Below, one piece after another: positions 23,412 to 49,486 of a DNA stretch of 64,000 nucleotides (positions are counted from its first letter, which is position 1; every line of letters starts with the position of its first letter). The translations under genes and the position numbers were made by a program. Source of the DNA: Pegea sp. RAD2-039. Its lineage: Eukaryota > Chordata > Thaliacea > Salpida > Salpidae. The stretch is taken from NCBI GenBank assembly GCA_034620365.1, contig JAQGEQ010000299.1, positions 992,001 to 1,056,000 of the forward strand, in the 5' to 3' direction. The notes below the pieces were generated by a model. It saw only the letters and a list, made by a program, of their open reading frames with translations. It ran no database searches and had not been told where the DNA came from.

Positions 23412-26348
23412 TCTATATAAAACAAAATAAATAATGAACTATAGTATGTAAATATCTATGAGTACACCATGATTTTATAAGTCATTCAAATGCAATTATC
23501 ATTTTATATTATAGAACAAAACTATTATAAATAAAATAATGGTCAGATATATACACATTGCTTAGAAACTTTAAATATTATTAACAATAAATAAAATTAA
23601 AAACTAAAAATTTGCATAAACCAAGCATTTAAATTTTATATTTAACATTTCTAAAAATAAATGCTTACAAACAAAAATAAAAAAACCTATGAAATAAGAA
23701 AATAGTCTAAGTCATGTCAACTAACATTAAATAAATTGTTAGCATTTTTTTAATTAAATTTTTTAGATCATGCCAAACTGATGTAAACAGTTTATTAATT
23801 AGAATAAACTCTAGCCAAATACCCTTCTCAAAATAGCTAAGTTAATTTATAGTATATTTAATAATTTGATTCTCAAACAGGCTTGTAATGATTAAAGTTA
23901 ATAAGCTGGCAATTATTCATTAATAAAAAGAATTTTGGTAAAAATAATTTAAAAGCAGGAATACAAAAAATTAAAAGTTTATAACCCATATACTTCTTTA
24001 AAAACTTTAATACAACTTATTTTTAATGAATAAAAGTGAATTATAAAATTAGATTATTCAAAAATGTAAGATTGATTTATAGTAAAATGAGATTTACATC
24101 TTAGCTTGCCAAAAATCTACAATAAATATTCACACTTTCAGCACTTCTTACTTATTGATAAAATGTTGACATAAAATGAATTATCATAAAACAAACTTAC
24201 CCTTAAAATCTTTAAATGTAAAAGCATAAAATCAACCCTGTGTTGATAAGAAACTCAAATTTATTCTTACCTATATTTAAATTATGTTTCCTTTGTCAAT
24301 CCTGTAAAGTAATCAAGTTTATAAGTTTGATAAATGAAATAAATATTTAAAGAAAAAATGAATAAAAAATAAGTTATAAATGACATTTTTCATCAAGATT
24401 TTATTTTAGCTTTGTCAGTAAAAATCAGAAAAACAATAACAATGAAAGTACTAAAAGTGGCAATAGTTGAAAAATATTTTTAAACAAATCATATAGTCAT
24501 ATAATCATAAATCTAATAGTAATGTTCAAAAAGCAGAACATAAATTTAAATAAAATAGTTAGAATGAATAAATAACAAAATTTAACAACTTTTTCTGATT
24601 TTAATCAAAATTATTTTTGATTACCAAAATATGAAAATATAAAAGTATTATACATCTTGATATCAAGCTATATATTAGTATTATAGTAAATTGTCAGTTT
24701 ACTGATAAAAAAATTTGTTCTTAACTAAAAATGATACTATTAACAAGAAAATACAATTAAGTTATAGAAGTTTTTTAAACTATACCTGTTAAAAAATAAA
24801 AACTTTAATAAGATTTTTTAGCACAACAATCATATTTCAATGTAATAGTTAATATAGTTTATAAGTCTAGTTTAATTTTGATAACTATAAAAAAACTATA
24901 AATAAATCAATATTAAGTTTATTTTAACACAGATTTTTTTAAATTCAAATCTATTCAAAATTAACTTAACAACACATAATAATTTATTAAATTTTAACAA
25001 TTTTTATCTTTTAAAACATCAATAACGCTCAACAAAAATCGTATCAAACACTAATAATTTTATACAAACATGTTTATAGATAAAAAAGCAACAAGAAAGA
25101 AAAGTAAACATAACCCTTAACCAAATATTTATTTAATCTAACGTTTTTAATTTAAAAATTTAATATAGCTTTTATATATAATCTATCTGTGGACTATAAA
25201 AAATTCAAGTTAAGAATTATTCTAATTAAAAGAAACAGTCCCTAAATTTTATATCAAGTTCTACTGGTAAACATCAATTTCTATTTATACTGGTATATCC
25301 ACAAAAAAAATAAATAAAATCACTACACACTGGCTTATTTAAATCTGCATATAATTTAGTATTTCTAATAAAGATAATATTTTTAAAAATAATATAAAAT
25401 ATATTTAAACAAATTTAATAAAATAAAATTGAACTTTGAAGAAAGAAAAGCAGTAACTTTTAAACTCTTTCACTTTCGGCCAAAATAACAAACAGCCACT
25501 CTTACACAAAACCTTAAATGTTAGTGTCAATGAAAAACTAATAAAACTTTCAAGTTTGATTTATACTTTTTATGCTCTACTATTTGCTTGCATACTAAAA
25601 AGTACATAAATTAATTTAAATTTTGTTTATCTAATAAAAGTTAAGCTTTGTAAGCTATTGCTTATAATTATAAAATTATGTAATTTATTTTTGAAATCAT
25701 TTATTATTAAATTTCGTCTACATATAATGTTATAAAATTTTGACTAAAATTATTTTTTATTAATACACTTTGATAAAAACTATTTAATCAAATATAGAAG
25801 TTAACTTTTTTATTATTTTACTTAGATAAAAACTTTTATTTGATTCATTTTAGTTGATACCCTCAATTAACTTGTTGTTTTCTTAATTTAATGTTTATAT
25901 TCTTTTGCTGAGGAAGATGAAATCTTTATTTGAGAATATTAATTATATGATTAATATTAATATTACTTAAGAATATTACTATTTAAGTTTTTTTATAAAT
26001 GTAATCTTTTAGTGTAAAGACATATTTTTGATTATTAGTTTTGTATTTTTATCTGATAAAAAATCTTTTTAATAGTTGTTGTAAGAGTTTTTAGCAAGTT
26101 TTTGTTTATCATTATTTACTCTTAAATATAATTTGTAGATATTATTGTTTATATTTTAATTTATTATATTCTAAAATTAAATATTTTTTGATATAATAGT
26201 TTATTATTTTTAATACTTGACAAAACTAGTTTTTTGCTTTAACATTTATTGTTTTTTTTTTTAATATTTTTACAAACTTTACAACAATTGTTTAACTAAT
26301 ATGCTTTTATGTTTAAATTTTTTTTATAGAATCACATTATTATTTACA
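23412..26348. other. AT-rich divergent intergenic region (BIG / TMEM161)
   Basis: About 2.9 kb between the start codons of BIG (minus) and TMEM161 (plus), close to 80% A+T in places. It must carry the 5' UTRs and promoters of both genes. A plausible 5' UTR acceptor for TMEM161 lies at 26328-26329, after a T-rich tract, leaving a 19-base leader before the ATG. A TATAG sits just before the BIG ATG and may likewise be an acceptor. No coding exon was recognised. Confidence 0.55.
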
Positions 26349-27785
26349 ATGGCTGTTTTTGGTTTTCAAATATGTTTTACACTTATCATGGCAAGCCTTC
26401 TACAAAAAATTATGCCAATTTATTCATTAGGACGATGGTTAATGTGTAGTGGTTCTCTTGTTTATTATAAACAGCCAAGTAATGATGAACTTAAAAAACT
26501 TTCTGGGAAATATTTTGAAAAACCAAAAAATAAACGAAAAGGGAATAAAACATACATCGAAAAAGAAATGACATCTTTTAAAATAGCAAAGAGTCTCAAT
26601 ATACAATTAAGTTCTGATAAAATTAGAGTTATTGACAGTCTGCAGCTTCGTAATTATGTTGATTATGAGTGGCTAGTCAATTACACATTTTTTGTTGTTC
26701 TTATTTATATTGTCACTGAAGTTTATTATGAAGTATGGACTCCTAGAAAAGACTTTAATATCTCTTTGATATGGATTGCCTTAGCTGTAGTATTTGCAGT
26801 TAAAAATATGTTTACGATTCTAAGAGTCTACATAAAGTCAGGAGGAGGTGAAATCTACTTGTCAGTAGTCTTTGCCATCTTCTCATTCATCTCATCTTTA
26901 TTAGTTCTTATGATTAATGAAGATTATTTGGATTTTGGTCTCAGTAAAACTGTTATAGAAAATCTGAACCTGAAATTTGATATATCTGGTCTTAAACTGA
27001 TCTTAGCTTTTATAAGCTCTTTCCATGGACTCATCTTTGCTTTTCCAGCTCTTCGTATGTCCCAGATGTATTGGGATGCTCTCAAATACTCCAGTGGAAA
27101 CTTCATTCTCAATTTCTTCCTTCATCTCAACTTTTGTGCTCCAGCCTTAATAGTAATCTTGTGGATCAAACCAATTGTAACCGACTTTCTTATCAATCCA
27201 ACCACTCTTACTGGTGACCATGTCCAACTAGTCACTGAGGGCCAGTTTGAAGTGGTTCGCATAGCGCTTGTGGTTTCTATGTGTCTCCTACGTCTTCTTC
27301 TTATTCGGCCCCATTTACAAGCATACTTGAACATTGCTTTTGATAAAGTGGAGAAGATAAGACATGAAGCTGGAAAGATCACTAATTTAGAGTTGAGGTC
27401 CTTAGTTGGGCGGGTCTATTACTACTTAGGTGTGGTCGCAATGCAGTATCTCAGTCCCATTGTGGTCCACTTGGGCTTGGCTTTCTACCTCAAAACTTTA
27501 GGCAACTATTCCTGGAAGGCTTTAATTGATTCTAACGCTCCTCATCATCTTTCATCTTTCAACATGACATCACAAAACGCTGATGACGTCACTAATCGAC
27601 TTACATACGATTCATCACTTCAGGAAATGATATCTTCTTATGATACCGAATTCCGCTCACTTTATGCTTCTATATCACCTGATTTGATGCGTGGAATCTT
27701 CTCATATGCTGTCTTCTGGTGTTCAGCTAATTGGTTTGTTGCAACTTGTCTCGGTTTGTTGCATCACTCTTATTTAGCCAAATAG
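26349..27785 (+). CDS. TMEM161: TMEM161-family multi-pass membrane protein
   Basis: Conserved animal membrane protein; in vertebrates TMEM161B is linked to heart rhythm and brain development, but its molecular activity is not settled. The whole coding region is one exon of 478 residues (human 479-487). Family marks are MASLLQKIMPIYSLGRWL at the N-terminus, YLVTEVYY-like VTEVYYEVW near residue 120, ISLIWIALAV, YLDFGL, LRMSQMYWDAL, LLWVKPI-like LWIKPIVTDF, and RSHLQAYLN-like RPHLQAYLNIAF near 330. About eight or nine hydrophobic segments are visible. The frame is open 48 bases further upstream, but the ATG at 26349 matches the family start and follows a likely 5' UTR acceptor at 26329. The lack of coding introns is unusual for the family. 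The 3' half is richer in GC than its surroundings. Confidence 0.95.
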   Translation: MAVFGFQICFTLIMASLLQKIMPIYSLGRWLMCSGSLVYYKQPSNDELKKLSGKYFEKPKNKRKGNKTYIEKEMTSFKIAKSLNIQLSSDKIRVIDSLQLRNYVDYEWLVNYTFFVVLIYIVTEVYYEVWTPRKDFNISLIWIALAVVFAVKNMFTILRVYIKSGGGEIYLSVVFAIFSFISSLLVLMINEDYLDFGLSKTVIENLNLKFDISGLKLILAFISSFHGLIFAFPALRMSQMYWDALKYSSGNFILNFFLHLNFCAPALIVILWIKPIVTDFLINPTTLTGDHVQLVTEGQFEVVRIALVVSMCLLRLLLIRPHLQAYLNIAFDKVEKIRHEAGKITNLELRSLVGRVYYYLGVVAMQYLSPIVVHLGLAFYLKTLGNYSWKALIDSNAPHHLSSFNMTSQNADDVTNRLTYDSSLQEMISSYDTEFRSLYASISPDLMRGIFSYAVFWCSANWFVATCLGLLHHSYLAK

Positions 27786-31600: not shown

Positions 31601-34600
31601 TTATTCCAAATCGTTCAAATTTTCATAGTCATAGTTATCTGATGGTATGATTTCTCGCATAGGTGGTACTACAACTCTTATTTTATCAATGATGTCTTCA
31701 ATGTTAACTGCAAAAAAAATATATTGAAAGAAAAGAAAAAATTCTTTGTACAAATATTAAGTTTTACAAATAAGAAGGATTATTCTAGCTGTAAATCATT
31801 TCTATTTTCAATTACACCAAGATCTATCAGACTTAAAGCAATTCAGCCTTTTGTAGAAAACTAAAAACGCATATCATTGTAGAATTGACCCCATCTAAGC
31901 CATTGTAGTTTTGTGGAAACTTACTTTTTACATCAAAATCTCCATCAAGGTCCTTATCCATATTAATTGTTGGTAACTCTACAAAAGGCAAAAGTAATAA
32001 ATTTCTAAAGAAATTGACAAAAAGCTTTTCATACAACTAAGTTTTAATCAATTTGGTTACCTGTTGAAAGAATCTCAGCAACTTGATCAATCGGATCATT
32101 ATCACCTTTGGATAATTTCAACTCTGGCAGAAGGGTTTCCTGAGATTTCTCTGACCCGTTATCTGAGTCTCCTTTAGCAAAAGAATCATCTAAATATAAA
32201 AAAGCTTTTAGTTAATTTTTAAAAAACTAAAATCTACTATTTTTAAAGATCTCATTATAGAACTTTCATCAAGTTTGTAGACCAATATTTTGGATCATAT
32301 AAAATAAAAACAAAAATAGAAGTAATATCGTTTTGTCGAACATCTGCTAATAAATAACAACAATTCCTAAATATTGATTGTCTTGATTCATTCGTTTATT
32401 TTTAATTTTAGATGAATTATTTAGTGTATCTTTTATATTTTCACCTACCGCCTCCTTTAGAGCCATCTTTTTCCTCATAAGTATAAACTTGATAATTACC
32501 CCCAAAACACACAATATAATCAACTCCTTGAAACATAAAATTGTCAATTCTTTGGTATTTGGGTTAATATAGAAGCATTAGGGGCAAAAGCTAAAATAGC
32601 CAGAAAGTTCCAAATCTCTGTTGCTTGTTAATAATATAAGCAAGTGGAAGGTCGGTTTGGTCAGTAAGAACAAATTTTAGCAGCAAAAAACTTCAACTTT
32701 TGAAATGGAAAAGATCTTCTAGTGTAGCCATCAATATTTAAATAGCTTTTACATTTAAACTGTACAGGTGGCGTTAAAATTTCTATAAATTCAGGTGAAT
32801 GGTCATTCTTATTCAATTTTTTTCATACAATCCAATTAGCTTGGATTTTAAAAAGCATTGTAAATGTAAGCAAGCAGTTAAAATTTGCAATTTAGGTTTA
32901 AAGCCACAGCTAAGTAAGCGGTTAATCAACAGTAGCACTATTAAACAAAAAACTCTATTGCTATTTCTTTTATAAAAATACTGTCATCAGCATTTCCTTC
33001 AAGTTTTCTCCATCGAGTGTATAGTCACCAGCCACAAGTTTCAAAATGAATAAAATAAATATCAAAAAAACAGTCCATTTGACTTCAGTTGTTTTTAGTT
33101 TCGTATTGTTTTTAATCTTTAAATTATGACCAAAAAATCATTTTAGTCAGACTTAATTTGATTTTAAAGAATGTATGTTATTTAATTAAAGCCAAAAACG
33201 ATGTTTAATTGCTTTAATTTTATTAAATCTAGCTCAATAGCCTTAATTTCAAATACTAAAACCTAGAAACATCACGAGTGAAAAGCATTAATGATTTGTG
33301 TCATGCAAGTCAAGCTAATATAGAATGATTTACCATTAGAATCAAAATGAGTTTCATCTGAAGCTGTTGAGAAAAAATGAAATTTAAAAATATTTATGAA
33401 AGAATTATATGTTTGAATTTTTATTAAATATTTCTTATTAATTGTGAAAGTTAACTCTCAAAATTGATGTTCTACTACTTTACATAAAAAAGATATAGAA
33501 TTAAGTTTGAAAAATGTTTTAAAAGTATTCGACTTTAGATATACTTTAAAGAAGGGAACATTATTCTGGGATGTACTTAACCATAATTAAAAATACGATA
33601 CAATAAAATTCTACTTATTCGAAAAGTTCAAAAATATATTGTGTGGAACATAGTGAAGAAAAGGTAAAGTAAAAAACAGTTTAAAATAGTAAACTTTGAT
33701 CTTTAAACTTTTACAATGTAAACACAAGAAAAACACCAAAAAGTTAAATGTAAAAACATGATGAATGTAAGTTTAAACAGAATTATTATTTTTAAAAGAC
33801 AAGATTACTTATAGCATGTAGTAAATTTAAATTCTAAAATAAAAGACAAATATCAATTTGTTATATTAAATGTCAATATTTAGAACAACTAAAAAAACTT
33901 GTTACTGATTATTTATCAATGAAAGTTTATAAAATAAAAAATAAACTTTAAAAATAAATAAGGAACTACAATACATCATCCACAATATCAAGCTATAGGC
34001 GCTCCCGAAAGTTTTCAAATTATTCAAAAAGTGTCATTTCTTCAATAGTGCTTGAAATAGCTTCTATATCATGAGACTTATAACGTAATTGAAAAAATTT
34101 TTCAGTTCAGAACTCATTTTTCGATTAAACTAAAATGTAAATTTAAAACAGATGATTTCTGTCTAAGCAAGTTCTTACAACTTTTATCTATTGAATCTTC
34201 TATCAAATAATGATGTTATTAGAATGATTTTACAATAAATTATCGAAAAGTACCCCTCAAAAATGATGAAACACGTGGCTTTACGTTTTTTCGAAATATT
34301 TTGAAATCAATGAACTGTATCAAAACTGACAAAGCAATCTACACGAAAGAAAATATTGTGGGTGAAGTATTTTCCGATTCGTTATTTTAATTTGCCAAAA
34401 CCAAAACTATTATCACAGGTCCTAAATTATAAGCAATTATAAGCAATATTGAATTCAAAAGTGTTTTTTTACATCTTCTATGTATATCTTGCTCTACATG
34501 TACTGGAATCACGAAATCATGTTTTTTACAAATGAAAAGTTTTCTATTTTTATTGAAATAATTAAGTTTTATGTTTTCTAAATTTGGTAAATTGATTTAC

Positions 34601-37294
34601 TTCAACAAAGCAATCTTTCATATATAAGTGCCCGTATAAGCTTAAATAAAAACCACACGCTTTTTATTAAATATTGTTCAAAAACAAACTTTTAAAACAG
34701 ATTTGCTAAACTTTAAACATCTTTATGGCATCTATAATTAATATTTTACAAAAAGTTTTTATCGGTTAAACATAAAAAAGTTAAAATTCTTACAAGTTTG
34801 TTTTTCTTCCCCTCCTGAAATTTCACCTGAGCTTTCAGAATATTCTGAAATTAAAATTTGGTGTTACCTTAGTAGAAAAGCTAGCTTAAACTCAAAACTA
34901 CCTATTTCGCTGACAGAAGCATCTTCATCATCTGTAGGAGCGCTTGTTTCTGCAAATAGTACAAATACTTTCGAGTAATTTTTCACACTTACTTAACTTG
35001 TTTACTAGTAATTAGGTAAATTATAACTAATAAAGAGTATAATTACTTTATCTTTTATATTAAAAAACATCCTAATTTGTTGTCAATTTTCCCACTTCAT
35101 TAAAATGCATATTTAAAACTATATTTATTCAAAAAAAACAAGAAAATGTTTTTCCAGCTAAATTATGTGATGTCAATTAAAAACTAATTTATCTATTAAG
35201 AAAATTACTTTTGTAGTTTTCTTCCATGTAATCACCTGATGCTTCACCGTCTAAAAAGTTTGAAAATAATCCTATTATTATTGTGCAAAACAGATCATCA
35301 TTTTTGCGTTAAAGATGCCTTCTTTGTTGTAAGCCATTTGTTGATTGAAGTAAATTCAAAGCAATAAAGTATGCGCTTGTTCTTATTTTACAAAGCATAA
35401 GATTTTCTTTAACAATTGAATTTAATCTTTCAGTAAGCTAGCTCTTTTGGTTACAAGTGATTGAAAAGGGAAATGATGACGTCATTAAGCAAATGTAACT
35501 TCAGCTGGCTTGAACTAACCTGCCACAGCTTCAACGAGTTGTAATAAATCATCTGCAAAGAAATTTACGAATTGCATTTTGTTTTCAAGAATATCTATTA
35601 AAAACTACCAATCATTATTATACATCATCTTAATCTTAAGCTCAAGGTCTTTGAATTATTTTATTCAACGTGTAATAAAAAGGATGTGGTCAGGAAACTT
35701 GTTTGTGTAATATTTGTCGTTTTTATCTCCCGAATTAGAAAAATCTTATTTTATGATGTTTGATGTAATAATCGCATATAAAAATTTTATTTATTTTGTT
35801 TATAAACATAATTTGTTAACTTGTTTGTGTACTAAATAATATCTATTATATTTTTATATCTTATTTATTTATTACATTAAATTCTTTATCTTATTTATTT
35901 TCTTTTTATTTATTTTATTGTTTTTTTATTTCGAATAAAACTTTCAAAAATGAAGAACTCACTATCTCCTGAACCTGATTCATCTGCAAGATCTTCATCA
36001 TCTCCTATCATTGGTAGCATCATATATTCTTTAAAAATTTTCAAAATATTCGTGTGATGAATTTAAACGAGTTTCTACAGCTACTTATTTTGAAATAATC
36101 ATTAAAACTTATTAGAAATCGGTTTGAAGTTAATTTAATAAAAGAATATTTGAACAACTATAAAAACCTCTTGAATTTGCTTCCACATCTGAACTGAAAC
36201 CTAAAAAATAAGAATGTTTTGAAAGACAGGAAGTAATTTGAATTTGTTTTGCTTAGCGTTAGTATTTGCATAATCTATTTGTAAATTTTGTTGAATATCG
36301 CTTATGAACCACCTTCAGCAGTAAGGGAGGAAATGACGTTCTCAGGTGTAAGATCACCAGATCCACCTGTGGGAAAACTGTCATCTCATGTTACTGTTTT
36401 GTTTCAAGCAAACTTACCAGAGCCTTCTTCGACATTTGTATCTGCAATCTTGATTGGCGTTTTTAGTTCTGCAGTTAAAGAAAAATAAGAGTTTGAAAAC
36501 TGATTTAAACAGAAATCTGTAAAAATCTTTTTAGGACTCTTGCTGTTAATACAAGATGTAAGTTCAAGAAGAAAAATCGGTATCTTAATGTCTATACACA
36601 AATTAAATCAGATATTTACATGGAATAATTTCATTCCTTAATTTTGGTAATATAGCCAAAGAAGAAAAATGTTCAAAAAGATCCCAAAGTGAATATGATA
36701 AAACTCAGTAAAAAAGACTCTTCTGGAAGCATTTAACTCTACATTTAAATAAGATCAAAATGTGAGACTTTTAACACCAAGTTTAGATGTTTATTAAGCT
36801 TAATTAGCTTAACTATTTCAAGATTTCTATTTTTATAATTTGTTCAGAAAAGATTTTTTTGATGACGATGACGTTGATAGCGATGACTTTAGATATTTAC
36901 GAGCAATTAACGAAATCGTATAAATTCAAACATAAAAACAAAAAAGTTGAATTTCTACAGATTAGCAAATGAAGCAACTTTGAAAATTTATTAGAAAAAT
37001 GTCTTATAGATATTTTCTAATAAAATTTGTATTATACTAAAAAAGTTTTTTTATAAATTAAGTTAAACATTACTTGATAGCTCTAAACTCTCCATATTTC
37101 CATATTCGTTGCTATAAACCCCACTGTACGATGGATATTCATAATAACCGGATGATTTAGGATACGGAGAACAATTTGAAGCATGAAACTCTTTATGAAA
37201 TAGTAAATAGTTAATGCATTAAAGATAAACTGACAATAATTCAATACTTACTCAATATACAAAAGAAAGCTAGAGACAAGATGAAACTTTTCAT
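31601..37294 (-). CDS. Secreted acidic Ser-Gly protein with RGD, proteoglycan-core-like (14 exons)
   Basis: I do not recognise a known family. Exons, minus strand: 37252-37294, 37074-37190, 36418-36468, 36313-36366, 36168-36200, 35963-36004, 35520-35552, 35209-35250, 34902-34949, 34794-34844, 33334-33363, 32061-32189, 31925-31978, 31601-31707. All 13 introns are phase 1 and the sum gives 277 residues. The protein opens with a signal peptide (MKSFILSLAFFCIL), then a Tyr-rich stretch (GYYEYPSYSGVYSNEYG). A long acidic body follows with Ser-Gly sites next to acidic residues: VEEGSGGSGD, DESGSGD, GEASGDYMEE, ESSGEISGGEE. These resemble glycosaminoglycan attachment sites. NSRGDDED gives an RGD across an exon junction. 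The end is DNYDYENLNDLE. There is almost no cysteine and no transmembrane segment after the signal. Inferred role: extracellular proteoglycan core or matrix/adhesion protein. The chain of in-phase exons supports the gene; a missed small exon is possible. Confidence 0.75.
35477..35484. promoter_or_regulatory. CRE palindrome TGACGTCA in an intron
   Basis: A perfect TGACGTCA in the intron just upstream of the exon 35520-35552 region of the secreted acidic gene, in otherwise AT-rich sequence. Confidence 0.3.
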
Positions 37295-37738
37295 TTTGAA
37301 GTTTTCGGTTTTAATAACAAATAAAAATCTGAATTTTTTCTAAGGAAATAGAAAAAGATTTAACATTATTAGACTATCTTCTAAAAGCTTCTTTCTTTAA
37401 TAATTAGTGATCTAGAAACTACGATAGAAGTAATCTATAAAACTTTAAGTTTAAAACTAAAATACAAAAGTTGTAGATAAAAATATTATGATTATCGTTT
37501 ATATAACATTTGTATAAATATTTATAAATTAAGTTATTACTTATAAACATAAATTTGTAATGTAAATAGTAATAAATCTGATACTATATAAGTTGTTTAT
37601 TTTATATGAACTCAAAAAATTATCTATAACTTTTTACTGGGTGATTAAAAACTATTTAAAATTCTAAACAACAAATGTTTAAACTACAACTGTGGTGACT
37701 TCTTGTAAAAATGAAATGATAAGGTCTCATTTACAGAG

Positions 37739-37746
37739 TATTTATA
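37739..37746 (-). promoter_or_regulatory. Candidate TATA box of the secreted acidic gene
   Basis: GCGTATAAATACTCTG on the minus strand gives a strong TATAAATA. It lies about 445 bases upstream of the start codon of the secreted acidic gene and in the right orientation. A start site about 30 bases on would leave a 5' UTR of roughly 400 bases, or a shorter one if spliced. In such AT-rich DNA a chance match is possible. Confidence 0.35.
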
Positions 37747-40700
37747 CGCAAAAGATGAAGGAGAAATGGATTTTCCAGAAACATGAGGTTTTCACTGAAA
37801 TTATGTGAAGTTTTGTCTAGTTTCTCAATTATCGTTCGTTGACGCATTAATTTTTATTAATGTGTTGGCTTGTACATACAATTATACCTTGTGAAACAAT
37901 TGAACTTATATAAATTGTTTGTTTTTTTATCATTTTAATTAAAAAAAAATACTTTTAGGTTTATCAAATTAAGTTTTAGAGTAAAACCTGATTGATCAGT
38001 AATTTCACAAATAAATCAACTTATTTAACTCATACTTTGAATATTTGAATAATCAATCATGCAAGCAAAAAAAACAACAACGAAATTTGAACATATCGAA
38101 TAATAAAGATGACGTCTTTGAATTAATAGGAGAAAAATCATTCAAATTCTCATTTAAATTTGCTGAAAGTTTGATAAAAGGGTGATTTTTATAAAAAAAA
38201 TTTGTACTAGAAACTTTAAGATGCATTTTTTTCCAACGCAAAGAACAAACTAAAATTCATATAAACTGAAATTTGTGCGAACTTAGGTGTCTAGTATAAT
38301 CGTTGAGCTTTTAAAATGTATTTTGAAAATTACTTTTACTGAGTTTAAAGTGAAATTAAAAAATCGTTCAATTGATTGAATCGATAAAATATTTTCTTGT
38401 AATAATTGCCTTTAGTAGTTGGTATAAAGAAATAAACAAACCAATTTAGTAGCTTATAAAGTAAAAGCATAAAATATGTAATTGACAAAATATAACTTGT
38501 GTTTTCTTACTAATGTTAAAACTTTGAATAGATTAAAAGACTATTTTACAAAAAAAAATAAAATATTAGAAGAACTTGTTATCAATAAAACTGAATGTCA
38601 TGATTTTCTTTACTCTTTTAAACTTACAGAAAATATTTTATAACTTTTCTTTGATCTTTTACTTATTTATGTTTTTTTCTAAAACGCTTTAATTACTATT
38701 CAAAGAGAAAATTCAATCCTTTAAAGCAAACTTTCTTTTAGAAAAATAAGAAAATAAACAAAATAAATAATGACTTAATCAAATCTAAATGATGCTGTCG
38801 CCTTTTAAGGTTCTGTGAGCTCTTTTATGATATTACGTTTCACTTCTGAGGTTTTAGCTGCTCAAATGAAAAGTTTGAAATATGAACCCTAATAAAGACA
38901 TGGCTTATAAGAATTCCCCGGAAAACCAAATAAGGAACATAATACTATTATATACGACTTGATTATTGTTATAAATATAACTCTATTTATAGTTTATTAT
39001 TTTGAAAAAAGTAAACAAGTGCATTAGTTTAAAAAAATTTCTTGAAACTATTTATAAATGATAAATTGATAGCTTTCAATCAAGATATGAAAGTAAATTG
39101 GCACAACAAACATATTTTCATAGTTCAAATAAAAACTTAATAAAATCTATAGCATGTATAATGTAATCACAAAATTATAACATAAGATGCTTGATCAGAA
39201 TTATAGATGAAATGAAATAAATAAAGATTATTGTATAATGAATCTAGATTATATATAATGAATTGACATTAATCTTGTGGCTTCTTTCTTCAAAATGTGT
39301 TTAAAAAGAAAACGCTTTTGACTAGTTTAGAAATTAAAATTCTTTCTTTTAAAGTTGATACTCAACGTTTAAAATAAAAACTTACAAGAAGTATACAATT
39401 AAACTAAATGCGCCGATTTTTTATCAAATTAATATTTGACTATATGTTTGAAACCAAAAGTTAATAAAGTGAGGCAGAAGTCAATTGAGTTAAAGTTTAA
39501 CTAACATTGTTATTATACTTATCAAGCTGTAAAAACCTATACATTTTAGTAATGAATGCAAAAGGTAAGACTCATAAAAAATTTATTCACAAATTCCTTG
39601 TATAAAACTCAAGTTTAATTTTACTCATTAAATTATTCAGATGTTATTTGCTACCCTCTATAACACTTTATCACGAACTGAATGCAATTTACTTTGAAAT
39701 TTTAAACAGTTTTTTTTTTCAGAAATTAAATAATTAGCTAAGAAAGTTATCGTGCTGTTAACTTATTTAGATATCAATTATCAAATATATTTTTATTATA
39801 AATAATTATTATTGATAGTCTAAGCTCAAACTTATTTTACCAATCAGTTTATTGTAGCTTCAAAATACCAGCCAAAAGGCTGTTTACAATAAACGACTTG
39901 TACAGACGGAAACAAAAAAAAGATTCTTTGCTTAACTGCATTTATAGTTCATTGATTAAAAACAATCTATATTCCCTAAGATGTAACAATCAGCCAAAGA
40001 AATAAATCTGCAAAAACTAATAACTGCTTCTATTAAGTCTTTAAAAAGATAAAAAAAACTTTTAGTTAAAAATAGAGTTTCTCGATTTAGGTAATAGGAA
40101 GTAATAATCTCAGGATAAAACGAATCATAAAACGAAAAATTTTCTTGAATATAAAAATCAACACACTTTGAAAAAATAATGGATTGAATTTTTCAGCAAG
40201 CCTCAGCCCACTTTACTAACCCAGCTTTTTAAGCTCTTTTCATAAAGTTCAAATAAATACTAGAGTAATTATAGAACGCTCATAATATTTAGATTTTCTA
40301 AAATATTTAAGTTAAGTTTTTGATGTTATTTTAAAAAGGGTTTACTTTTATTTAAATATTTATCTTTGTAAAGTTGAAAATAATATTAATAAATTCTAAA
40401 ATAATTTCGATAACTGGTTGATTTTTCAAGATAAGTCTGTAAAACTAGCACTGTATTTTAAGAAAAATACTCCATTAAATGTTTTAACGGTGGGTTGCTT
40501 ACAAAAAAAAAGTTTACTTCATCGGCATTTCATTTACTTTTTATCTAACTGCTCACATTTTCTCATTAATAATTAAACAACGTGGTATAACAGTAAAGAT
40601 GTTTACCGCTGACGTAAATGTGTTAAGCGTCATTTTCGTATAGACCGTTGTCTTTCGGTATAGACCGTGCTATGGGTAGCGTGTATCGTTAGTATACTTA

Positions 40701-42541
40701 TCAATGTTGTTAGTCGCCTTAATAATTTAAAAGAAGCTCTATATAAAAGGTCATTATCATTACAAATAGTTCATTACATATATAGGTATGTTGTATAATT
40801 GATTTCATATAGTACTTAGAACAAAATTACATCATTTAGAAATTCTTATTCGAAAATAATTAAGAACAACGAATTCTATTTTGATAGATGTTGTCAGTCA
40901 ATCATTGAAAACTGTTGGTTAAATCGTTGTAAAAATTTTTAGAAGATACGTCGATATAGATTACATCATCTTTATTTGTTTTTCAAAAGCATATTTAACC
41001 AATAATAGACAATAAAGTTTTATTCTTCATCTAGAATGCTTCTATTGATTTAAACTGATGGTAACACCAGAAACATTACTAAAAGACTTTCTATAATACA
41101 ATTTCATACTTTAACAGGATATTTGTGATTGATTAGCAGATTAGAACTAACAGCTGTATGATTATGTAAATCAGATATTAAACAAGTAGAAATTAATTTA
41201 TGGTCATGATAACTTTAAGAAAAATATATCTAGTTGTTCTAAGCCTAAAGAAATTGGTTTTATTAGTTTTACTAGAATTAAATGATTTATCTTTTATTAG
41301 ATTGTTGATTAAAATATCATGCAAATTTATTCAAATGTTTTTAATACTTCTATGAACAGTAAAAAATAGAGACAAATCTTATAAATTATGATTTTTAATC
41401 TATACAAGCTTATACCAGATTCTATTAATTGTCTCAAAAATTAACTGAATGTATAAACTTATAATAAACTAAAGTTTTAACTAAATAAGCTTAAAAGGAA
41501 CAAGATCTAAAAAAATAAACTTTTATCTACCTTAAAACATTTATCAAAAGTTTAAACTACTTATACCTCAGCAACATGTAAATACCAAACCTGTTAATAA
41601 AAAGGTACAACAGATTCTATTCAACAAATACTAAGCAGCAAAGTTAAGTTCAAGTCCTTTTAAGAACATCAGGAGTTTCTAAGGTATCAATAATTTATAA
41701 CAATTGCTATTTTTGAAGATACACATTTCTGTGATCAAAATTGTCTGCTGTAAACTTGCATTTATTTTGATTTTCAAAAGGCTGAAATAACTGGACTATA
41801 ATAAGCTGATTAAATTGGTGTTTAAAATCTTGCTTGACTGGTAAAAAACTTGCTTTCTAATTAAAACTACTTAACATATTTTAAAGTTTAGAATTTTGCA
41901 AATGTTTAGAAAGCATTGAATACTTTGATAACGATTTGTATGCTTTGCAAAGTTGGATTTCTCTACCTAAGTGTCCAATTCTTTAATCAATACTACTCTT
42001 TCAAATCGATTTTCAAAAAAGATTTTAAATTGATTTGTAAATTAAACTTTAAAGAAAAACATTTAGATTTAAAGAAATAAAAACAATTCTTTTGTTATAA
42101 ACAAACTGTTAGTTCAGTTACTTTTTACATTTGTTTATAGATGAATAAACTTTAAAAAGAAAATATTTGATAATTCTCAACATTTACTAATTATTTGTCA
42201 AAGTATTTTTACATTAATTTGTTTTAAAACCCATTTTTAACTAGCTCAATTCATTTTTAACCAACATTTTTGTCAAGTTGTTTCAATCGATTCAGTATAA
42301 GAAAGAGTTAAACAAGTTATTTGTTTAGTTTATTTTGAATATGACCTACAATTGTTTTAACAAAATACATATAATATACAGAGATTTGTAAATTCACATT
42401 CTTAAGATTATGTTCTTTTGAAAGCTGCTTATTGATTGTTATAGTCGAATGAAATGTTGCATAAGAAGAACAAACAAAGAAATAAAAAGCAAATGATAAA
42501 AGTCAAAAAGTTGAACAGAAGACAATCATCAAATTTATTTT
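37747..42541. other. Intergenic, AT-rich
   Basis: Between the upstream region of the secreted acidic gene and the stop codon of the STPG-type gene. No exon was recognised. The one distinct patch is the promoter-like segment at 40.63-40.79 kb listed separately. Confidence 0.5.
40634..40784 (+). promoter_or_regulatory. Promoter-like patch with direct repeats and TATA box
   Basis: A locally GC-richer patch carries an imperfect direct repeat, TTTCGTATAGACCGT at 40634 and TTTCGGTATAGACCGT at 40653. About 75 bases further on is a textbook TATATAAAAG at 40740-40749, then a donor-like TATAG/GTATGT at 40784-40785, where a short first exon could end. No reading frame follows on the plus strand, so the product, if any, could be noncoding or have exons too small to see. 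Confidence 0.35.
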
Positions 42542-45180
42542 CTAGGATTTAGTTTTTGAAGAAATTGTGTAAAAAGGTCCTTTAGACTTCAAACTGACAT
42601 TATAAGCGTTTGGTGAAGGGGTTTTCACTGAAATATAAATTAAATCATTAAAACTTGTTGAAGTGTAAGGTAACAACTATTTACTTGACTTAAGCCACTC
42701 TTGCTTCCTAGGGGATGCTGAAATAGTAAATGAAGGAGCTGTTTTCCAGACTTGCAAATCAGCGAGTTCCGGGAAGTAGAAATTGGCAGGCGGTGAACCA
42801 TCACCAACTTTCTTCTTTAATTGTTTACCTGAAAGTAATTAAATGTAATTTGAAAAAAAAAAATTCATAAAAAGAATAGTTTTTTAAATCTAATAAATAA
42901 GAAAGTTTTCATTTAAGATAAATGAGAGAAAATTTTTCAGTTTTTAAATATTTTTAAAATGAGTTTTTATCAAATTATCGAAATAAAAACTATTTAAAAA
43001 GAAATAATCCATTCAGCTTTTTAATTTGTCAAAAAATCAATTTATAAATTTAATATTGTTTAGAAGGTGTACACCGTGGACTGCTAGTATCATCTTTTAT
43101 TACCTAGGAGGTCACCAACTTCAACAATTATCAGTAAAACGTCTTTCTCAACAACAACTAATAACATCACCAAACTATTTTTAGTTTAAAACTTTAATTT
43201 CTTAGGTCGGAATTGTGCTCACTTAAAAGTAAAACAAATCGAAATGATTATTTTGCTACTGGACAAGATTCACTTTGTCAGTTCATTAAAAACTACCCTA
43301 TTACATCAAAAAATGTTTTTTTTGTCAGAGGACATGAGATCTATGTAAAAAATCAAATATTTACCCATGCTGTGACTGGGGAAGGTTTGTTTCACGAATT
43401 GCCTTGCTCCAACAGTAGCTGTTTGTGGGTAATGGAATGGGGTAGGCCACTTGGTTTCGAAATCACATTTGTGAAAGAATGGAGATGAAGTTCTCATAAA
43501 AGGTCGAGCCCAACACTTTCTACCACCTCCACCTAACAATCAAAAGATTAGCAACACACTTGTTAATGTACTAGTTTACTTTTTGTATTTTCTCTAAAAC
43601 CAAATGTGTATGATGGAGATGAAGATTGGACACAAATATTGTATGTAGCTGGACCAGGACTATCTACTTTAGAAGATGTTGTTAGTCTAGAATCCAGTTT
43701 TTCAGTTGAAGCTTGAAAAGAAACAAAAAAGTTTGAAAATTGAAATAATTTTCTTTCGATTTTCTTGTAAACTTTAAACGAAAAAGTTTAAATTAAATTT
43801 TGTTATGAAGTCTTACTAATATTTTATAAATATTGTTTCATCATACTCTGAAGCTTTGGGTTTTGATTTGCTTCATAGTATTTGTAAATAGATTTTGGTA
43901 GTTTTGGCCGAAGAGACTCTCTACATTTATAACAGAGGATGATTAATTTTCAATAAGACTTTTAAATATATAATTGTTTACCTGACATATGCAGCATATT
44001 TTAACATACCTTGCTGGATTTTACTGGGTTCTGATCTTAAGATTATTCTAAAATGAAATTAATGTTAATGAGAAAATTTTATTTAAAAAATTTGATGAAT
44101 GATATCAAGTTTTTAAAATGCAAATATTTGTTTAACAGATAAAATAGAGTTCATTTGATGTATGAACGTAAGATCCTTAGAAATAATATAGTTGTTTCAT
44201 AGATTAAATCAATCATAATTTTATTAATTACAATTAAATATAGTTTTGAGAATTCATTTTAGTCATAAAACTTATCTGTATAGACCATTAATTACAACTA
44301 AAAACTGATTTAAATAAAATTGTCAGTAACCTTTCTCATTATAATTTTCTTTTGTTAAAGAAAGCATGCAATAAATACCTTTTAGGTATTGTGTGGTATT
44401 GACTGGAATAACCTTCAGGTATATGAGGTACTCTTCTATTGATATAATTTTGTATATCTTTACAATTATGTCTTGGTGTATTTCTAAGGGACATGTTTTC
44501 TTCAAATTTGTACTTATAAAAAAAACATAAAATTCTTAATACAAACATTAATAGAACTACATTGAATTGTTTAGATAACAAAATATTATCTTTATTTATA
44601 GTATTTTTTATTAAACAACTTATTTTTTCTATGGTCATCAGATTTTCTAATATTGTCAAAAAATTGCTAAATAAAGAAAAAATACATTTTATATTTTAAG
44701 CTTGACACTTATTTCATAAAATATTAAAAAATATAGTACCTTATTTTTTGGTTTTATATTCTTTGTTTTAATGCTTTGATCAACATCTGTTCTACCTGAA
44801 TTAAAAAGATGAAACAATTTAAAAGATGAAACATTTTAAAAGATGAAACATTTTAAAAGATGAAACATTTTAAAAGATGAAACATTTTAAAAGATGAAAC
44901 ATTTTAAAAGATGAAACAATCTAAATGAGTTAGTCTAGACAACTTTGAAGATATTTATTAAATACTAAGAAATAATAAACTATAAGAAGCAAAAAAAAAG
45001 GTTTAGGAAGATTTTATCAAAATTTAGATATTTTATGTATGAATGGTTTTAATTGTAAAATTCTTTCAAATTTAAATTACCTGTATCACTTCCAGTAGGG
45101 ATTTTAGTTTTAAACTTAACTGTAGAATCAGTTTTTTCTGAACCAATCTCTGTTATACTCATCTGAGAATCTTTATACAT
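42542..45180 (-). CDS. SHIPPO/STPG-repeat ciliary or sperm-tail protein (9 exons)
   Basis: Proteins with sperm-tail PG-rich (SHIPPO/ODF3) repeats bind axonemal microtubules in cilia and sperm tails. Exons, minus strand: 45081-45180, 44740-44795, 44379-44512, 44010-44047, 43847-43918, 43580-43711, 43365-43532, 42685-42828, 42542-42627, in phase for 309 residues. The clearest repeat is DSPGPATYNI followed by SPSYTFGFRENTK near residue 150-175. A second is TPSPNAYNV followed by GPFYTISSK at the C-terminus. Between them, GDGSPPANFYFP with APSFTISA looks like another, degenerate one. Two further blocks (SSPFFHKCDFETKWP and the His/Tyr-rich IPEGYSSQYHTIPKR) are not assigned. Exon 5 uses the second of two adjacent AGs as acceptor, which is needed to keep the frame. 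Orthology to a particular ODF3/STPG/CIMAP gene is open. Confidence 0.8.
44804..44922. repeat. 17-bp tandem repeat, 7 copies
   Basis: Seven nearly perfect copies of a 17-bp unit (AAAAGATGAAACATTTT) in intron 1 (44796-45080) of the STPG-type gene. Only the first and last copies differ by a base or two, which suggests a recent expansion. Confidence 0.95.
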
Positions 45181-48100
45181 TATGATTTTTTTGCTTATTT
45201 TCAGAAATTAAACAAATAATAGAAATAAAACAAACATTTGACATTTAAAAACACATCTAAACAATTCAAACAAAAACAACAAAACTTGTTGAAGTTTAAA
45301 CTCAATTTTTATTATTAAACAACCTAATAGAAATACTTTATAAATAAAAATAATGATAAATAACATATCAATTATTAAATAAAATTAAAACAATCTATCT
45401 ATAGAACTAAACTTAAAAACCAATATTCTTCAAATTGAAGTGACATAGAGCACAAATTTCATGAATACTGCCCATAAATAGTTACAAAAACCATTAAACT
45501 AACTTTTGGAACAATTATAAATCCAGCTATTTTATTGATTTAATGACAAATATTCTACTAAGTACTACTTATAACTACTTATAATTTCAGAGCACTTGAA
45601 GGTAAATTAAAAGGGCTTGTCAATAATAAGAGTTTTATTTGTCTTGTATTAAACAAAATATATTCATAATAATTCTAGGTGGCTATACAATTATCATTAT
45701 AGAGCTTATGAGAATAGCAAACAAATTGTTATTCAAAGAATTGAAAAGTTGTTTTTGCAACAATAAAAAATTTTGCTAAAGAAAGCATCATATAAACAAG
45801 GTTTTAAACTGAGTTTTTTGATTTATCAAATATTTATCAAACATTGACTAAATATATTTTCTGCAATACACAAACTTTTCTAAAAGAAAATAATAAAATA
45901 AGCAATGTTGAAAAGACGAATAAAGTTTTATAAATTTTAATGGCGTCAATATCACCAAGGTGCTTTTATGCTGCAACTCTAGCGGAGAATAAAATTGTCT
46001 AAAAATATTTAATTTAAAATGATCAATAAATGTATATATATAAGATAGATACAAAAAGCTAAAATTAAAAATTCTTATAAGACGTGTGATACATCTTATC
46101 AGATATAATTGATTAGATTTAACAAATGCTTTGCTTAAAAACGTATCTTTATACTTTTATGTTACCTTTATTTACTAAAATGAAAAATTAGTGAGTTTTT
46201 ATTATTACAATTAATTCTACTCTATATTCAGTTTTAAAAGTATCTCACTGCATGATATGCATATAAGGATTCTAATGGACAAGCACTTTCTTTTAATGTT
46301 GATAGTAAGTTGTACATAAATTAAATATGTTTTGTTGCTGTCATCAAACTTAACCTTCATTAGTTTGTTCTATTTTGAAACTGAATAAGCGATAAGACAT
46401 ATTTGAAATTTTTTTAGTAAATCTTAGTAAAATTTTCAAAGTTATGTAATAGTTTTCGAAATAATTCTCACCATTCATTTTTTAGAATCTGCTTTTATAA
46501 CAGGTTAAATTTCACAGGATAGTTAATTTTGGGGTATTGTACCAAATCAAAAAACGTGTTAGAATAATTTTTGTATACTAGAATCTACATCATTACAAGA
46601 AATTTTTTCACTAGGTTAACGGTAAAAAACGATGAGACACCCTATATGGAGCATAATTTAATAGTAAGCTCTCTTAGCTTAGAAAGCAAATAGCTATGAT
46701 GGCGGCAATGTATAAACAAGACTAGTTCTTCTCCGCTAATGAATCCTGAAACTTTTTTAAGATCATCTTTAAGTTTATCAAGCAAAATTGTATAAGATCA
46801 AAACCTAACTTGAGTGGCAATCGAGTCCTGAGTTGGATTTTAAAACTTTAATTTAGTTTTCCTTTTCTCTAATTCCTCGACTTAGTTTCATGATGTCCAA
46901 CATGTACGAACAATTTTTGAATCCATTTATTCTTATTCTTATTTTTATGCTTATTTTTTCATTTTATATTTTTTGGCGAAAAGGTCTCATTCTGGGCGAT
47001 CTTACATAAAAGTAATAAAAAAAGGCAGAAAATGCAAACATTTTGATATAAAGAATTATTTGTTTGAAAGTTTATAAATATCGATAATTTATTTCTTAAA
47101 GCTGCAAAAACTGTAAATGAATTTTTAAAAACTAATACACGACGTAGACAATGCCGAATTTATTTACCTATCAAAACTCAAAATATTAAGATATAATAAA
47201 AAAGTTGTTGATGTTTCATCATTAAGAGATTTTTTTGAAAAGATGAACTTTAAAAAATCGAAATGAAATGTTGATTGTGTAAAAATTTATTTTGCAACCA
47301 ACCAGGTTTTAAACATTAATAACTAACCTTCAAAAGATTTTACAAAAAGAGTTATATTGATTTATAAAATATATTTTTTCAAAGCTTATTACTATCATTA
47401 AAACAATTTAACAAATTTATTCTAAATGCAGTAGATGTCTATTTTACGTTAAAGTCTTGAAGATATTAATTTTATTTTTGTATCATTTTAGAGAAAAGCT
47501 AGGATTGAGTCAGTGCTTATTGTATATCAAATCTTTAAAATCTCTTTTGCACCAAAAAGCATTAAACTAATTGTTCCTTTTGATTTATAGCAATTTATAG
47601 AGAGGTTAAAATAATTGATTTGTTGCGCGCAATTATGACCTTTAAGTAACTTTCATCAACAAATACAAGTTCATTGTGTGATGTTGTTAGCAAATGAGTC
47701 GACTTAACTTGTTTTTTATTAAATTGTGTTTGCTATTTTGGATACGAAGTACCTTACTTGTGTTACAAACCAAAGTTTTTGATAAGGACGTTCATTCGTG
47801 AGTATCTAGAACCACTTTAGATTAAAACTATTACAAACTTAAAAAAGATCGAAAATTATAAAGCTACAATCGAGCAATTTGTATTATGACGCAAACGATT
47901 TATAACTCTAATAGTTGGAACAAAAGCTTTTGTAGTAAAACCACAATTCATCATTTGGCTAAACTATTTCAAAATCAACGTTTCAAAATTTGAAAGATTT
48001 CAAGTAAGAGCTTTCAAACCTTAAAAACATCCTACTTACTACAGTTAATGGATTGGTTTTGTATCAAAGGCTCGCTACAATTGATGTTTTACTTGATTCA

Positions 48101-48328
48101 AACTCAAAAGAAGTCTTTTTTAAGCTATTGAACAATAATCAATAAAAGTTCAAAAGTTGACACACACAGTGTAAATACAAAGTTTCAAGTTAAACATGTG
48201 AATGTGTTAAAAAGCGGCAAGCTCTTCAAATGCATAGATAAACTGCAGAAAAGCTATTTTGAAAAATTGGTTTCATTTTGAAGAAATAGGTGTTAGGCAA
48301 ATACTAGAGATATCAGCACACAGTGAAA
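45181..48328. other. Intergenic, AT-rich
   Basis: Between the start of the STPG-type gene and the stop codon of the DUSP-like gene, both on the minus strand. It should include the promoter of the former and the 3' UTR of the latter. No exon, RNA gene or repeat was recognised. Confidence 0.5.
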
Positions 48329-49486
48329 TTAACGCAATTTAAATGGACGAAAACAAGTAAGGTAAAAGTAGTGAATAAGTTCTTTTTGTTTTGGTGTGTT
48401 CACACAGTTAGGTTTTAAATTTGAAAGTAATTGTAACGACTCTTCAGGAAGCTTTCTCTTGGTTTTGACTAAGTAGCAAGCTAGTAATATTCCAACACAA
48501 ACGGAATTGCTACTTGAGTGCACCACTACAGCCTGAAGAAGAAAATTGACATTTTTTACGATGAAGAAGAAAATATGTTTAAAAATTTTTGAGGTTAATT
48601 AAATAAATTCAAATTTTATTTTTATGAAATGATAAAAGTGAACAAAAACTAAAAAAATTTGTTAATTCTGTTTGTTTACCTCATTTTTGTTGTTAGCTTG
48701 TTCAACAATCTCAATAAATCGGTTAATCTGTCGGACATTTGGTTCTTTAGCTATTCGTAAACTGATCTTATTCAACTTTGGCATCTCTACACTGCTCATT
48801 ACACTCAATGGCGGGTTCTTCTCAAACGAAACCACGTGACGAATCCCTTTGTCGAAGAAGTATTTGTAATGACCTTAAAATAACAAGTTTAATGAACTTC
48901 CATACATCACTTTCGACTTTTAAATATTCTTTTTAATTAACTGAAAACAAGATGTGAAACTTATAGCTACTTTTTGTAGGTTTAAATGAATTTTTGTGTT
49001 TTGAAACTTCTCTCTTTTGCATTTTACTTACTTAAATGATTAGGAGTTTCACAGACAGCGAGCCAGCCCTTATCGATCCATAAAAAGTCAGTAGGTGGTA
49101 ATGAGAGCTTTTTTCTGGTGTCCATAGCTGATAACAAGATACTCGGTAATACAATCGAATCTTTGCATCAATATCATGAGATTATAAAGTTTATAACTAA
49201 GTTAGAAAATTAATCATTTAAAATAATTAACTTTCAAACAATATAATAAATCAATAATGATTTAAAAATCTAAATTATTAAATAATTTGAATAATATTTA
49301 AAAAGCAATAGATAAAACCATCTCTTATGTGTAAATTTGTATAAATTTTTGTTGTATTATATCTATAAACAAATCAGAAAAGTACTTACATCTTATAGCA
49401 CTATCTTGGCAAGCATTATTCAAATCTTTTACCCATAAATCATCTAATCTTGTAATAGTTGAGTTTTTCATAAAAATATTTGCCAT
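48329..49486 (-). CDS. DUSP23-like pseudophosphatase (4 exons)
   Basis: Dual-specificity phosphatase fold without catalytic residues. Exons, minus strand: 49390-49486, 49032-49127, 48680-48873, 48329-48532, in phase for 196 residues (DUSP23 has 150; the extra is N-terminal). Similarity runs along the whole domain: LPPTDFLWIDKGWLAVCETP, GIRHVVSFEKNPP, INRFIEIVEQANNKNEAVVVH, GILLACYLVK, ELIHYFY. In active members the P-loop reads HC-x5-R. Here it reads HSSSNSVC at about residues 134-141, so the nucleophile Cys is Ser and the Arg is Cys. The general-acid Asp of the IPD segment is also absent. The frame and splice sites are intact and the fold residues are kept, so a binding or scaffold role is more likely than a dead gene. 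It lies 275 bp downstream of CSN4 on the same strand. Confidence 0.85.

What the first reader, a model, noticed from the sequence alone, without database searches (positions are those of the whole stretch)
31601..37294. Undescribed secreted proteoglycan-like gene built from phase-1 exons
Fourteen small exons, all 13 introns in phase 1, give a 277-residue protein with signal peptide. A Tyr-rich start is followed by a highly acidic body with repeated Ser-Gly sites in acidic context (GSGGSGD, ESGSGD, EASGD, ESSGEISGGEE). Uniform phase 1 lets any exon be skipped or duplicated without breaking the frame, so the gene may make many isoforms differing in number of glycan sites. Seen: exons, phases, residues. 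Known: such sites carry chondroitin or heparan sulfate in proteoglycans. Inferred: this is a proteoglycan core of no family I know.
Basis: partly seen in the sequence, partly recalled or inferred. Interest (0 to 1): 0.78.

Follow-up and report, generated by a model that had tools for sequence, protein, structure and literature searches.

The report
Ascidian all-phase-1 proteoglycan-like gene
A sea-squirt gene made of about fifteen small, frame-interchangeable exons appears to encode a secreted, very acidic protein with likely sugar-chain attachment sites; the gene structure looks real, but the sugar chains and the splice variants are still inferred.

Summary
The exon chain is well supported. 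The genome (105.7 Mb) carries the Ciona-type spliced leader, so an ascidian. I add one likely exon (32526-32449): 15 exons, 303 residues. Weak points: exon 2's acceptor, several other acceptors below the training range, and a different 5' end when the start is left free. No Pfam or PDB family; no second copy seen. Acidic Ser-Gly sites exceed composition (7 against 1.5, P 0.0006; 5 against 1.1, P 0.003, for the finder's own version), though the genome's syndecan shows no such excess. Xylosyltransferase is present, and the one Fam20 found is xylosylkinase-like, not FAM20C-like. Best reading: a secreted, disordered proteoglycan core. Glycans, transcription and exon skipping are not shown; other animal genomes could not be searched.

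The parts
37252..37294 (-). Exon 1: start codon and hydrophobic signal-peptide core MKSFILSLAFFCIL, donor gtaagtat
   Evidence: hydropathy
37074..37190 (-). Exon 2 (probable): Tyr-rich segment FHASNCSPYPKSSGYYEYPSYSGVYSNEYGNMESLELS; weak AAAG acceptor
   Evidence: GC 0.36, reached by 3 of 337 intron windows; acceptor -0.3; including it lowers the chain score 154.6 to 151.6
36418..36468 (-). Exon 3, phase 1-1, ends in the Ser of the first acidic Ser-Gly
36313..36366 (-). Exon 4, phase 1-1, GGSGD
36168..36200 (-). Exon 5, phase 1-1, weak donor gtttttat; its end with exon 6 makes RGD
   Evidence: a GTTTT donor also occurs among chaperonin introns
35963..36004 (-). Exon 6, phase 1-1, DESGSGD; weak acceptor (-0.9); a shorter in-frame acceptor at 35983
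35520..35552 (-). Exon 7, phase 1-1, DLLQLVEAVA
35209..35250 (-). Exon 8, phase 1-1, GEASGD; inner in-frame acceptor at 35235, preferred by the finder, would remove the site
34902..34949 (-). Exon 9, phase 1-1, acidic
34794..34844 (-). Exon 10, phase 1-1, SESSGEISGGEE; inner in-frame acceptor at 34826, preferred by the finder
33334..33363 (-). Exon 11, phase 1-1, SDETHFDSN
32449..32526 (-).
   Evidence: chain score 138.7 to 151.6 when added; chosen by the finder
32061..32189 (-). Exon 13, phase 1-1, longest internal exon
31925..31978 (-). Exon 14, phase 1-1, DxDxDG motif (MDKDLDGDFD)
   Evidence: motif meaning recalled
31601..31707 (-). Exon 15, terminal, stop TAA; acidic Tyr tail DNYDYENLNDLE
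   Evidence: AATAAA 150 bases after the stop, one of four AATAAA/ATTAAA signals in about 700 bases

Best explanation
This is an ascidian gene, single-copy as far as seen, for a secreted, intrinsically disordered, strongly acidic proteoglycan core. The signal peptide sends it through the Golgi, where xylosyltransferase starts glycosaminoglycan chains on some of the Ser-Gly pairs in acidic context. The sites are spread over several symmetric phase 1-1 exons (exon 3/4 junction, 4, 6, 8, 10), so gain or loss of an exon changes the number of possible chains without changing the frame. Shown here: exon chain, phases, composition, motif excess, presence of two enzyme genes. Inferred: transcription, secretion, glycan attachment. 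Only possible: isoforms.
For: Phase-blind gene finding recovers the chain far above controls. Nine Ser-Gly pairs against 3.4 expected by shuffling (P 0.003); seven with 3 or more acidic neighbours within 5 residues against 1.5 (P 0.0006). In the finder's own 253-residue version (no exon 2, inner acceptors) 5 against 2.2 (P 0.054) and 5 against 1.1 (P 0.003). Two matches to E/D-G/A-S-G against 0.10 expected (P 0.005), the motif found at C. elegans chondroitin sites (Noborn 2018, as stated in PMC8418075, passages read). 69 acidic against 19 basic residues in the 286-residue mature part; the whole and its three segments fall on the disordered side of a charge-hydropathy plot. Xylosyltransferase is present (E 3.7e-43). 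The only Fam20 locus found matches a glycosaminoglycan xylosylkinase best (292 bits against 227 for FAM20C). A DNA pattern for (E/D)SGSG(E/D) with TCN serines has two matches in the genome: this gene, and a predicted protein on contig C262 with SG repeats that I take, by eye and unchecked, to have VWA-like domains.
Against: No transcript, peptide or glycan evidence. No relative in another species could be searched, so the exons have no conservation test. Six of 14 acceptors score below the training range. Phase 1 introns with AG|G flanks tend to place Gly at junctions (general knowledge); 4 of 14 junction codons are Gly, so part of the Gly content may come from splicing. This genome's own predicted syndecan ectodomain shows no significant excess in the same test (Ser-Gly 2 against 0.8, P 0.18; acidic 1 against 0.46, P 0.38), so the test does not simply track true proteoglycans. 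The Ser-Gly count depends on exon 2 and unsettled acceptors.
Confidence: 0.5

Rival explanations
1. A secreted acidic matrix or granule protein that works by charge alone (calcium or cation binding, granule packing, tunic matrix), without glycosaminoglycan chains. The Ser-Gly pairs are a by-product of an Asp/Glu/Ser/Gly-rich, fast-drifting disordered sequence.
For: 69 acidic of 286 mature residues and disorder-prone throughout; DxDxDG in exon 14; an RGD at the exon 5/6 junction; total Ser-Gly excess is only marginal in the finder's own version (P 0.054).
Against: Ser-Gly in acidic context stays above composition in all three versions of the protein tested, and two sites fit the strict worm motif.
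Confidence: 0.27
2. A SIBLING/osteopontin-like secreted phosphoprotein: acidic, RGD-bearing, phosphorylated on S-x-E by FAM20C, many small exons.
For: Acidic, RGD and six S-x-E sites; uniform symmetric exons by analogy.
Against: The only Fam20 locus found in the genome is xylosylkinase-like: 292 bits against 227 for FAM20C, with LDNAKSFG as in the xylosylkinase chain 5xom where FAM20C has LDNGRGFG. Apparent FAM20C loss in tunicates is reported, with reservations, in PMC5865150 (passages read). The SCPP family's introns are phase 0 (recalled; the listing was not followed up).
Confidence: 0.07
3. A peptide-hormone or granin-like precursor, perhaps itself chondroitin-bearing.
For: Secreted and acidic; several human prohormones carry chondroitin sulfate (PMC8418075, passages read).
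Against: Only one dibasic site in the mature protein.
Confidence: 0.06
4. Not one coding gene: a chance chain of AG..GT-bounded open stretches, or an incomplete model whose true gene has other ends.
For: Acceptors of exons 2, 3, 6, 8, 9 and 10 score below the training range; the 5' end changes when the start is free.
Against: 360 random sequences reach at most 42.6 against 158; exon GC is well above intron GC. The same finder recovers the genome's syndecan and Fam20 genes in recognisable form.
Confidence: 0.1

Closest known systems
Invertebrate-specific chondroitin proteoglycan cores (C. elegans CPG proteins)
   Same: Core proteins recognised by acidic Ser-Gly sites rather than by a shared family; two sites here fit E/D-G/A-S-G (PMC8418075 passages).
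   Different: No sequence relation tested or seen; no glycan shown; chitin-binding domains of CPG-1/2 (recalled) not found by Pfam here.
Syndecan
   Same: Acidic ectodomain with Ser-Gly sites behind a signal peptide.
   Different: No transmembrane or cytoplasmic part in this chain. The genome's syndecan is on contig C84 and its predicted introns have mixed phases 0,1,0,0,1.
Micro-exon genes (MEGs) of schistosomes
   Same: Most of the coding region in small symmetric exons; isoforms possible (PMC4350168, passages read).
   Different: MEGs are described there as apparently restricted to platyhelminths; no relation by sequence tested; exons here 30-129 nt; splicing not tested.
SIBLING / SCPP matrix phosphoproteins
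   Same: Acidic, disordered, RGD, uniform intron phase (SCPP phase recalled).
   Different: Phase 1 rather than phase 0 (recalled), and no FAM20C-type kinase found in this genome.

Membership tests
Proteoglycan (functional class) | Covalent glycosaminoglycan on the core | not testable with these tools
   Needs glycoproteomics
Proteoglycan (functional class) | Signal peptide or other entry to the secretory path | tested here: inconclusive
   Hydrophobic core MKSFILSLAFFCIL with hydropathy up to 2.9 over 9 residues; no dedicated predictor run; cleavage region depends on uncertain exon 2
Proteoglycan (functional class) | Ser-Gly sites in acidic context above composition | tested here: met
   7 against 1.5, P 0.0006; 5 against 1.1, P 0.003; but the genome's syndecan gives 1 against 0.46, P 0.38
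Proteoglycan (functional class) | Host has linkage-region enzymes | tested here: met
   Two looked at and found: xylosyltransferase and xylosylkinase-like Fam20. A search for the PF05679 family did not complete; the other linkage enzymes were not looked for
Syndecan | Syndecan transmembrane/cytoplasmic domain (PF01034) | tested here: not met
   Matches at C84, and weakly C1 and C108, none at this locus; the only Pfam row at E up to 10 was KCT2, E 3.6
Micro-exon genes | Most coding sequence in very small symmetric exons | tested here: met
   13 internal exons, all multiples of 3 and phase 1-1, 30-129 nt; MEG exon size limits were not looked up
Micro-exon genes | Platyhelminth family membership by sequence | not tested
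   No flatworm sequences available; genome is an ascidian
Micro-exon genes | Isoforms by exon skipping | not testable with these tools
   No RNA data
SIBLING / SCPP | FAM20C-type S-x-E kinase in host | tested here: not met
   Single Fam20 locus found, xylosylkinase-like; the assembly may be incomplete
SIBLING / SCPP | All introns phase 0 (recalled) | tested here: not met

The most novel reading that the evidence does not exclude
A chordate proteoglycan whose number of sugar chains is set by splicing. The acidic Ser-Gly sites are spread over five phase 1-1 exons, and the codons of 5 of the 9 Ser-Gly pairs read TCAGGN, so the site itself looks like an in-frame phase-1 splice acceptor. Using that inner acceptor (which the finder prefers in exons 8 and 10) would cut off the Ser and erase the site without a frameshift. 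One six-base motif would then be both glycan site and splice switch. TCA is also the commonest Ser codon here (15 of 39), so the codon choice itself is no evidence.
Probability: 0.1. Interest if true: 0.78.

Novelty: new variant of a known kind. Interest (0 to 1): 0.46.

Why it matters
If the protein carries glycosaminoglycans, ascidians have a proteoglycan core outside the named families that could be tested, in the sister group of vertebrates. Its uniform phase-1 cassettes would give a simple system for asking whether glycan valence is tuned by exon gain, loss or splicing. The single xylosylkinase-type Fam20 found in this genome helps to separate the glycan reading from the FAM20C-phosphoprotein reading by experiment.

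Tried and rejected
Chance chain: rejected on controls. Syndecan ectodomain with a missed tail: rejected, syndecan is elsewhere. SIBLING-like phosphoprotein: lowered by the single xylosylkinase-like Fam20. Second copy within the genome: none seen. The 6-kb DNA search returned 11 matches, 1 the locus itself and 10 at 76-82% identity to the AT-rich stretch 35786-35931 or part of it. All 8 protein matches lay in this locus; that search recovered only 8 stretches of a 15-exon gene from itself, so a diverged copy in small exons could be missed. PDB at E up to 10 gave only vestitone reductase (0.0085) and ORC1 (0.85), taken as chance. A COX1 search, meant to read the mitochondrial code, found nothing. 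tRNA and Rfam scans of the window found nothing. Paper searches showed no description of this gene in the rows listed; the library holds only open-licence papers and the searches were by word. PMC5612238 (passages read) lists nine ascidian proteoglycan homologues, all of named families. DeMarco 2010 is not held.

Shortcomings: only GT-AG introns were modelled; PMC2760879 (passages read) counts 596 non-canonical among 113,879 Ciona introns. misread minus-strand loci (their junctions came out empty); seen and corrected. One search stopped on a zero-length exon and was rerun with a minimum exon length. The 29 training introns were chosen with a generic splice consensus and scored on themselves, so they lean towards consensus sites. 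Of 30 chaperonin junctions examined, 1 gave no solution and was dropped; pairs more than 18 profile positions apart were skipped by rule.
Full report
WHAT GENOME. The window is bases 992001-1056000 of contig C249 in a 105.7-Mb genome of 387 contigs. The 16-base spliced leader ATTCTATTTGAATAAG occurs 272 times (149 forward, 123 reverse; the reversed-pattern control 0), including an array on C4 with about 200-base spacing, where the four copies read are each followed by GTAAGTGT. PMC7986045 (passages read) gives exactly this leader for Ciona intestinalis. I take the organism to be an ascidian; species unknown. Neighbours are a one-exon TMEM161 (26265-27785 +), a one-exon CSN4/COPS4 (49762-51018 -) and a Sec7/BIG-type gene (pieces at 18401-20018 -).

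THE EXON CHAIN. I trained splice models on 29 introns of this genome's chaperonin genes and a coding model on 7683 coding bases. Those introns are 19 phase 0, 6 phase 1 and 4 phase 2; 3 of 29 use AAG acceptors; donors include one GTTTT. With the start free, chains limited to phase 0 or 2 reach 51.2 and 37.0, to phase 1 155.9. Second-order Markov sequences made from the region reach at most 38.6 in 60 and 42.6 in 300. In the 300, no chain with 8 or more introns had a single phase; phases were 633, 711 and 574 for 0, 1 and 2, so the finder leans only slightly to phase 1. One of the 60 had 6 introns all phase 1, score 24.7. The result is stable for intron penalties of 11 to 16 bits; lower penalties admit one to three other junctions.

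OTHER GENES NEARBY. In overlapping 8-kb tiles over 104 kb, rows with 6 or more exons and score of at least 60 that lie away from this gene and from the minus-strand neighbours at 36-51 kb have a largest phase share of at most 0.62. Minus-strand rows starting at 36001-46001, holding this gene's start or the next genes, run 0.55 to 0.80, and the next gene's chain has 7 of 9 introns in phase 1. So richness in phase 1 is not confined to this gene; uniformity over many introns was seen only here.

WHAT IS UNSETTLED. With the start free the finder begins at 37184 with two phase-2 junctions and a different N-terminus, score 157.4 after its start penalty of 6. Exon 2 costs 3.0 score units, although its GC (0.36) is reached by only 3 of 337 intron windows; of those windows 39 have an open frame. 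The only acceptors open to exon 2 are AAAG or AGAG. Six of the 14 acceptors in the 15-exon chain (exons 2, 3, 6, 8, 9, 10) score below the lowest training intron.

THE PROTEIN. The mature part, taken from residue 18 (286 residues), has 69 Asp+Glu, 19 Lys+Arg, 37 Ser, 26 Gly, 16 Tyr, 2 Cys and no Trp. The whole and three segments lie on the disordered side of a charge-hydropathy plot. Nine Ser-Gly pairs occur against 3.4 expected by shuffling (P 0.003), seven of them acidic against 1.5 (P 0.0006). The same test on this genome's predicted syndecan ectodomain gives no excess (2 against 0.8, P 0.18; acidic 1 against 0.46, P 0.38), so the test is suggestive only. Two sites fit E/D-G/A-S-G (0.10 expected, P 0.005), the motif reported for C. 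elegans chondroitin sites (PMC8418075, passages). Acidic residues C-terminal of Ser-Gly favour heparan initiation by EXTL3, while chondroitin initiation by CSGALNACT2 showed no peptide preference (PMC10570366, passages); either chain is possible here. Four of 14 junction codons are Gly, so splice consensus may contribute some Gly.

FAMILY. Pfam at E up to 10 gives only KCT2 at E 3.6; the PDB gives two rows taken as chance. No second copy was seen, with low sensitivity for small exons. A DNA pattern for (E/D)SGSG(E/D), TCN serines only, has two matches in the genome: this gene and a gene on C262 whose predicted product holds a long SG-rich linker between domains that I read as VWA-like by eye.

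SEPARATING THE RIVALS. Xylosyltransferase is present. Fam20 was found at one locus only. Its predicted protein, recovered by the same finder with mixed phases, matches a glycosaminoglycan xylosylkinase (5xom) at 292 bits and FAM20C (5yh3) at 227, and has LDNAKSFG like the xylosylkinase where FAM20C has LDNGRGFG. PMC5865150 (passages) reports FAM20C as apparently lost in tunicates, with the reservation that the Ciona genome was incomplete, and names a Lys-to-Arg change in a Fam20 loop as one that abolishes the glycan kinase; that the Lys above is this residue is my inference. This favours the glycan reading over a FAM20C-phosphorylated matrix protein, but not over a protein acting by charge alone.

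UNIFORM PHASE. Modular extracellular proteins favour 1-1 exons, and phase 1 introns are in excess near signal-peptide cleavage sites (PMC7259759, passages), so the direction is expected; uniformity over 14 introns is the unusual part. Among 43 other introns here (29 chaperonin, 5 syndecan, 9 Fam20) 9 are phase 1. Schistosome micro-exon genes show the same logic of small symmetric exons (PMC4350168, passages) but are described as apparently flatworm-restricted. Skipping here is a possibility, not a result.

VERDICT. A real, well-formed gene by computation; most likely a secreted proteoglycan core (0.5), with a charge-only matrix protein the main rival (0.27). New variant of a known kind.

Noticed in passing
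window 14689-18011: A 28-bp satellite-like array of about 119 copies at 92% match lies next to the Sec7 piece of the BIG-type gene.
   Followed up: no
window, whole: TGACGTCA occurs 9 times against about 0.35 expected from dinucleotides, partly visible as DDVTS/MTS residues in coding frames.
   Followed up: partly
window 3915-5049 (+): Open frames that look like pieces of a non-LTR reverse transcriptase (by eye, e.g. FVYADDIKLL); Pfam found nothing in the first piece and the second was not scanned.
   Followed up: no
window 42599-43711 (-): Predicted exons with SPGPATYN-like repeats; SHIPPO-rpt (sperm-tail PG-rich repeat) only at E 0.3. This chain too is mostly phase 1 (7 of 9 introns).
   Followed up: partly
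window 47771-49471 (-): Predicted gene with a dual-specificity-phosphatase-like domain (PTP-SAK, E 3e-7).
   Followed up: partly
L065 1304-1822 (contig C262): A second place with the ESGSGD pattern: a predicted exon with a long GSGGTGSGG-type acidic linker, a further candidate glycan-bearing protein.
   Followed up: partly
window 34826 and 35235 (-): Ser-Gly codons written TCAGGN double as in-frame phase-1 acceptor-like sites that the gene finder prefers over the outer ones.
   Followed up: partly
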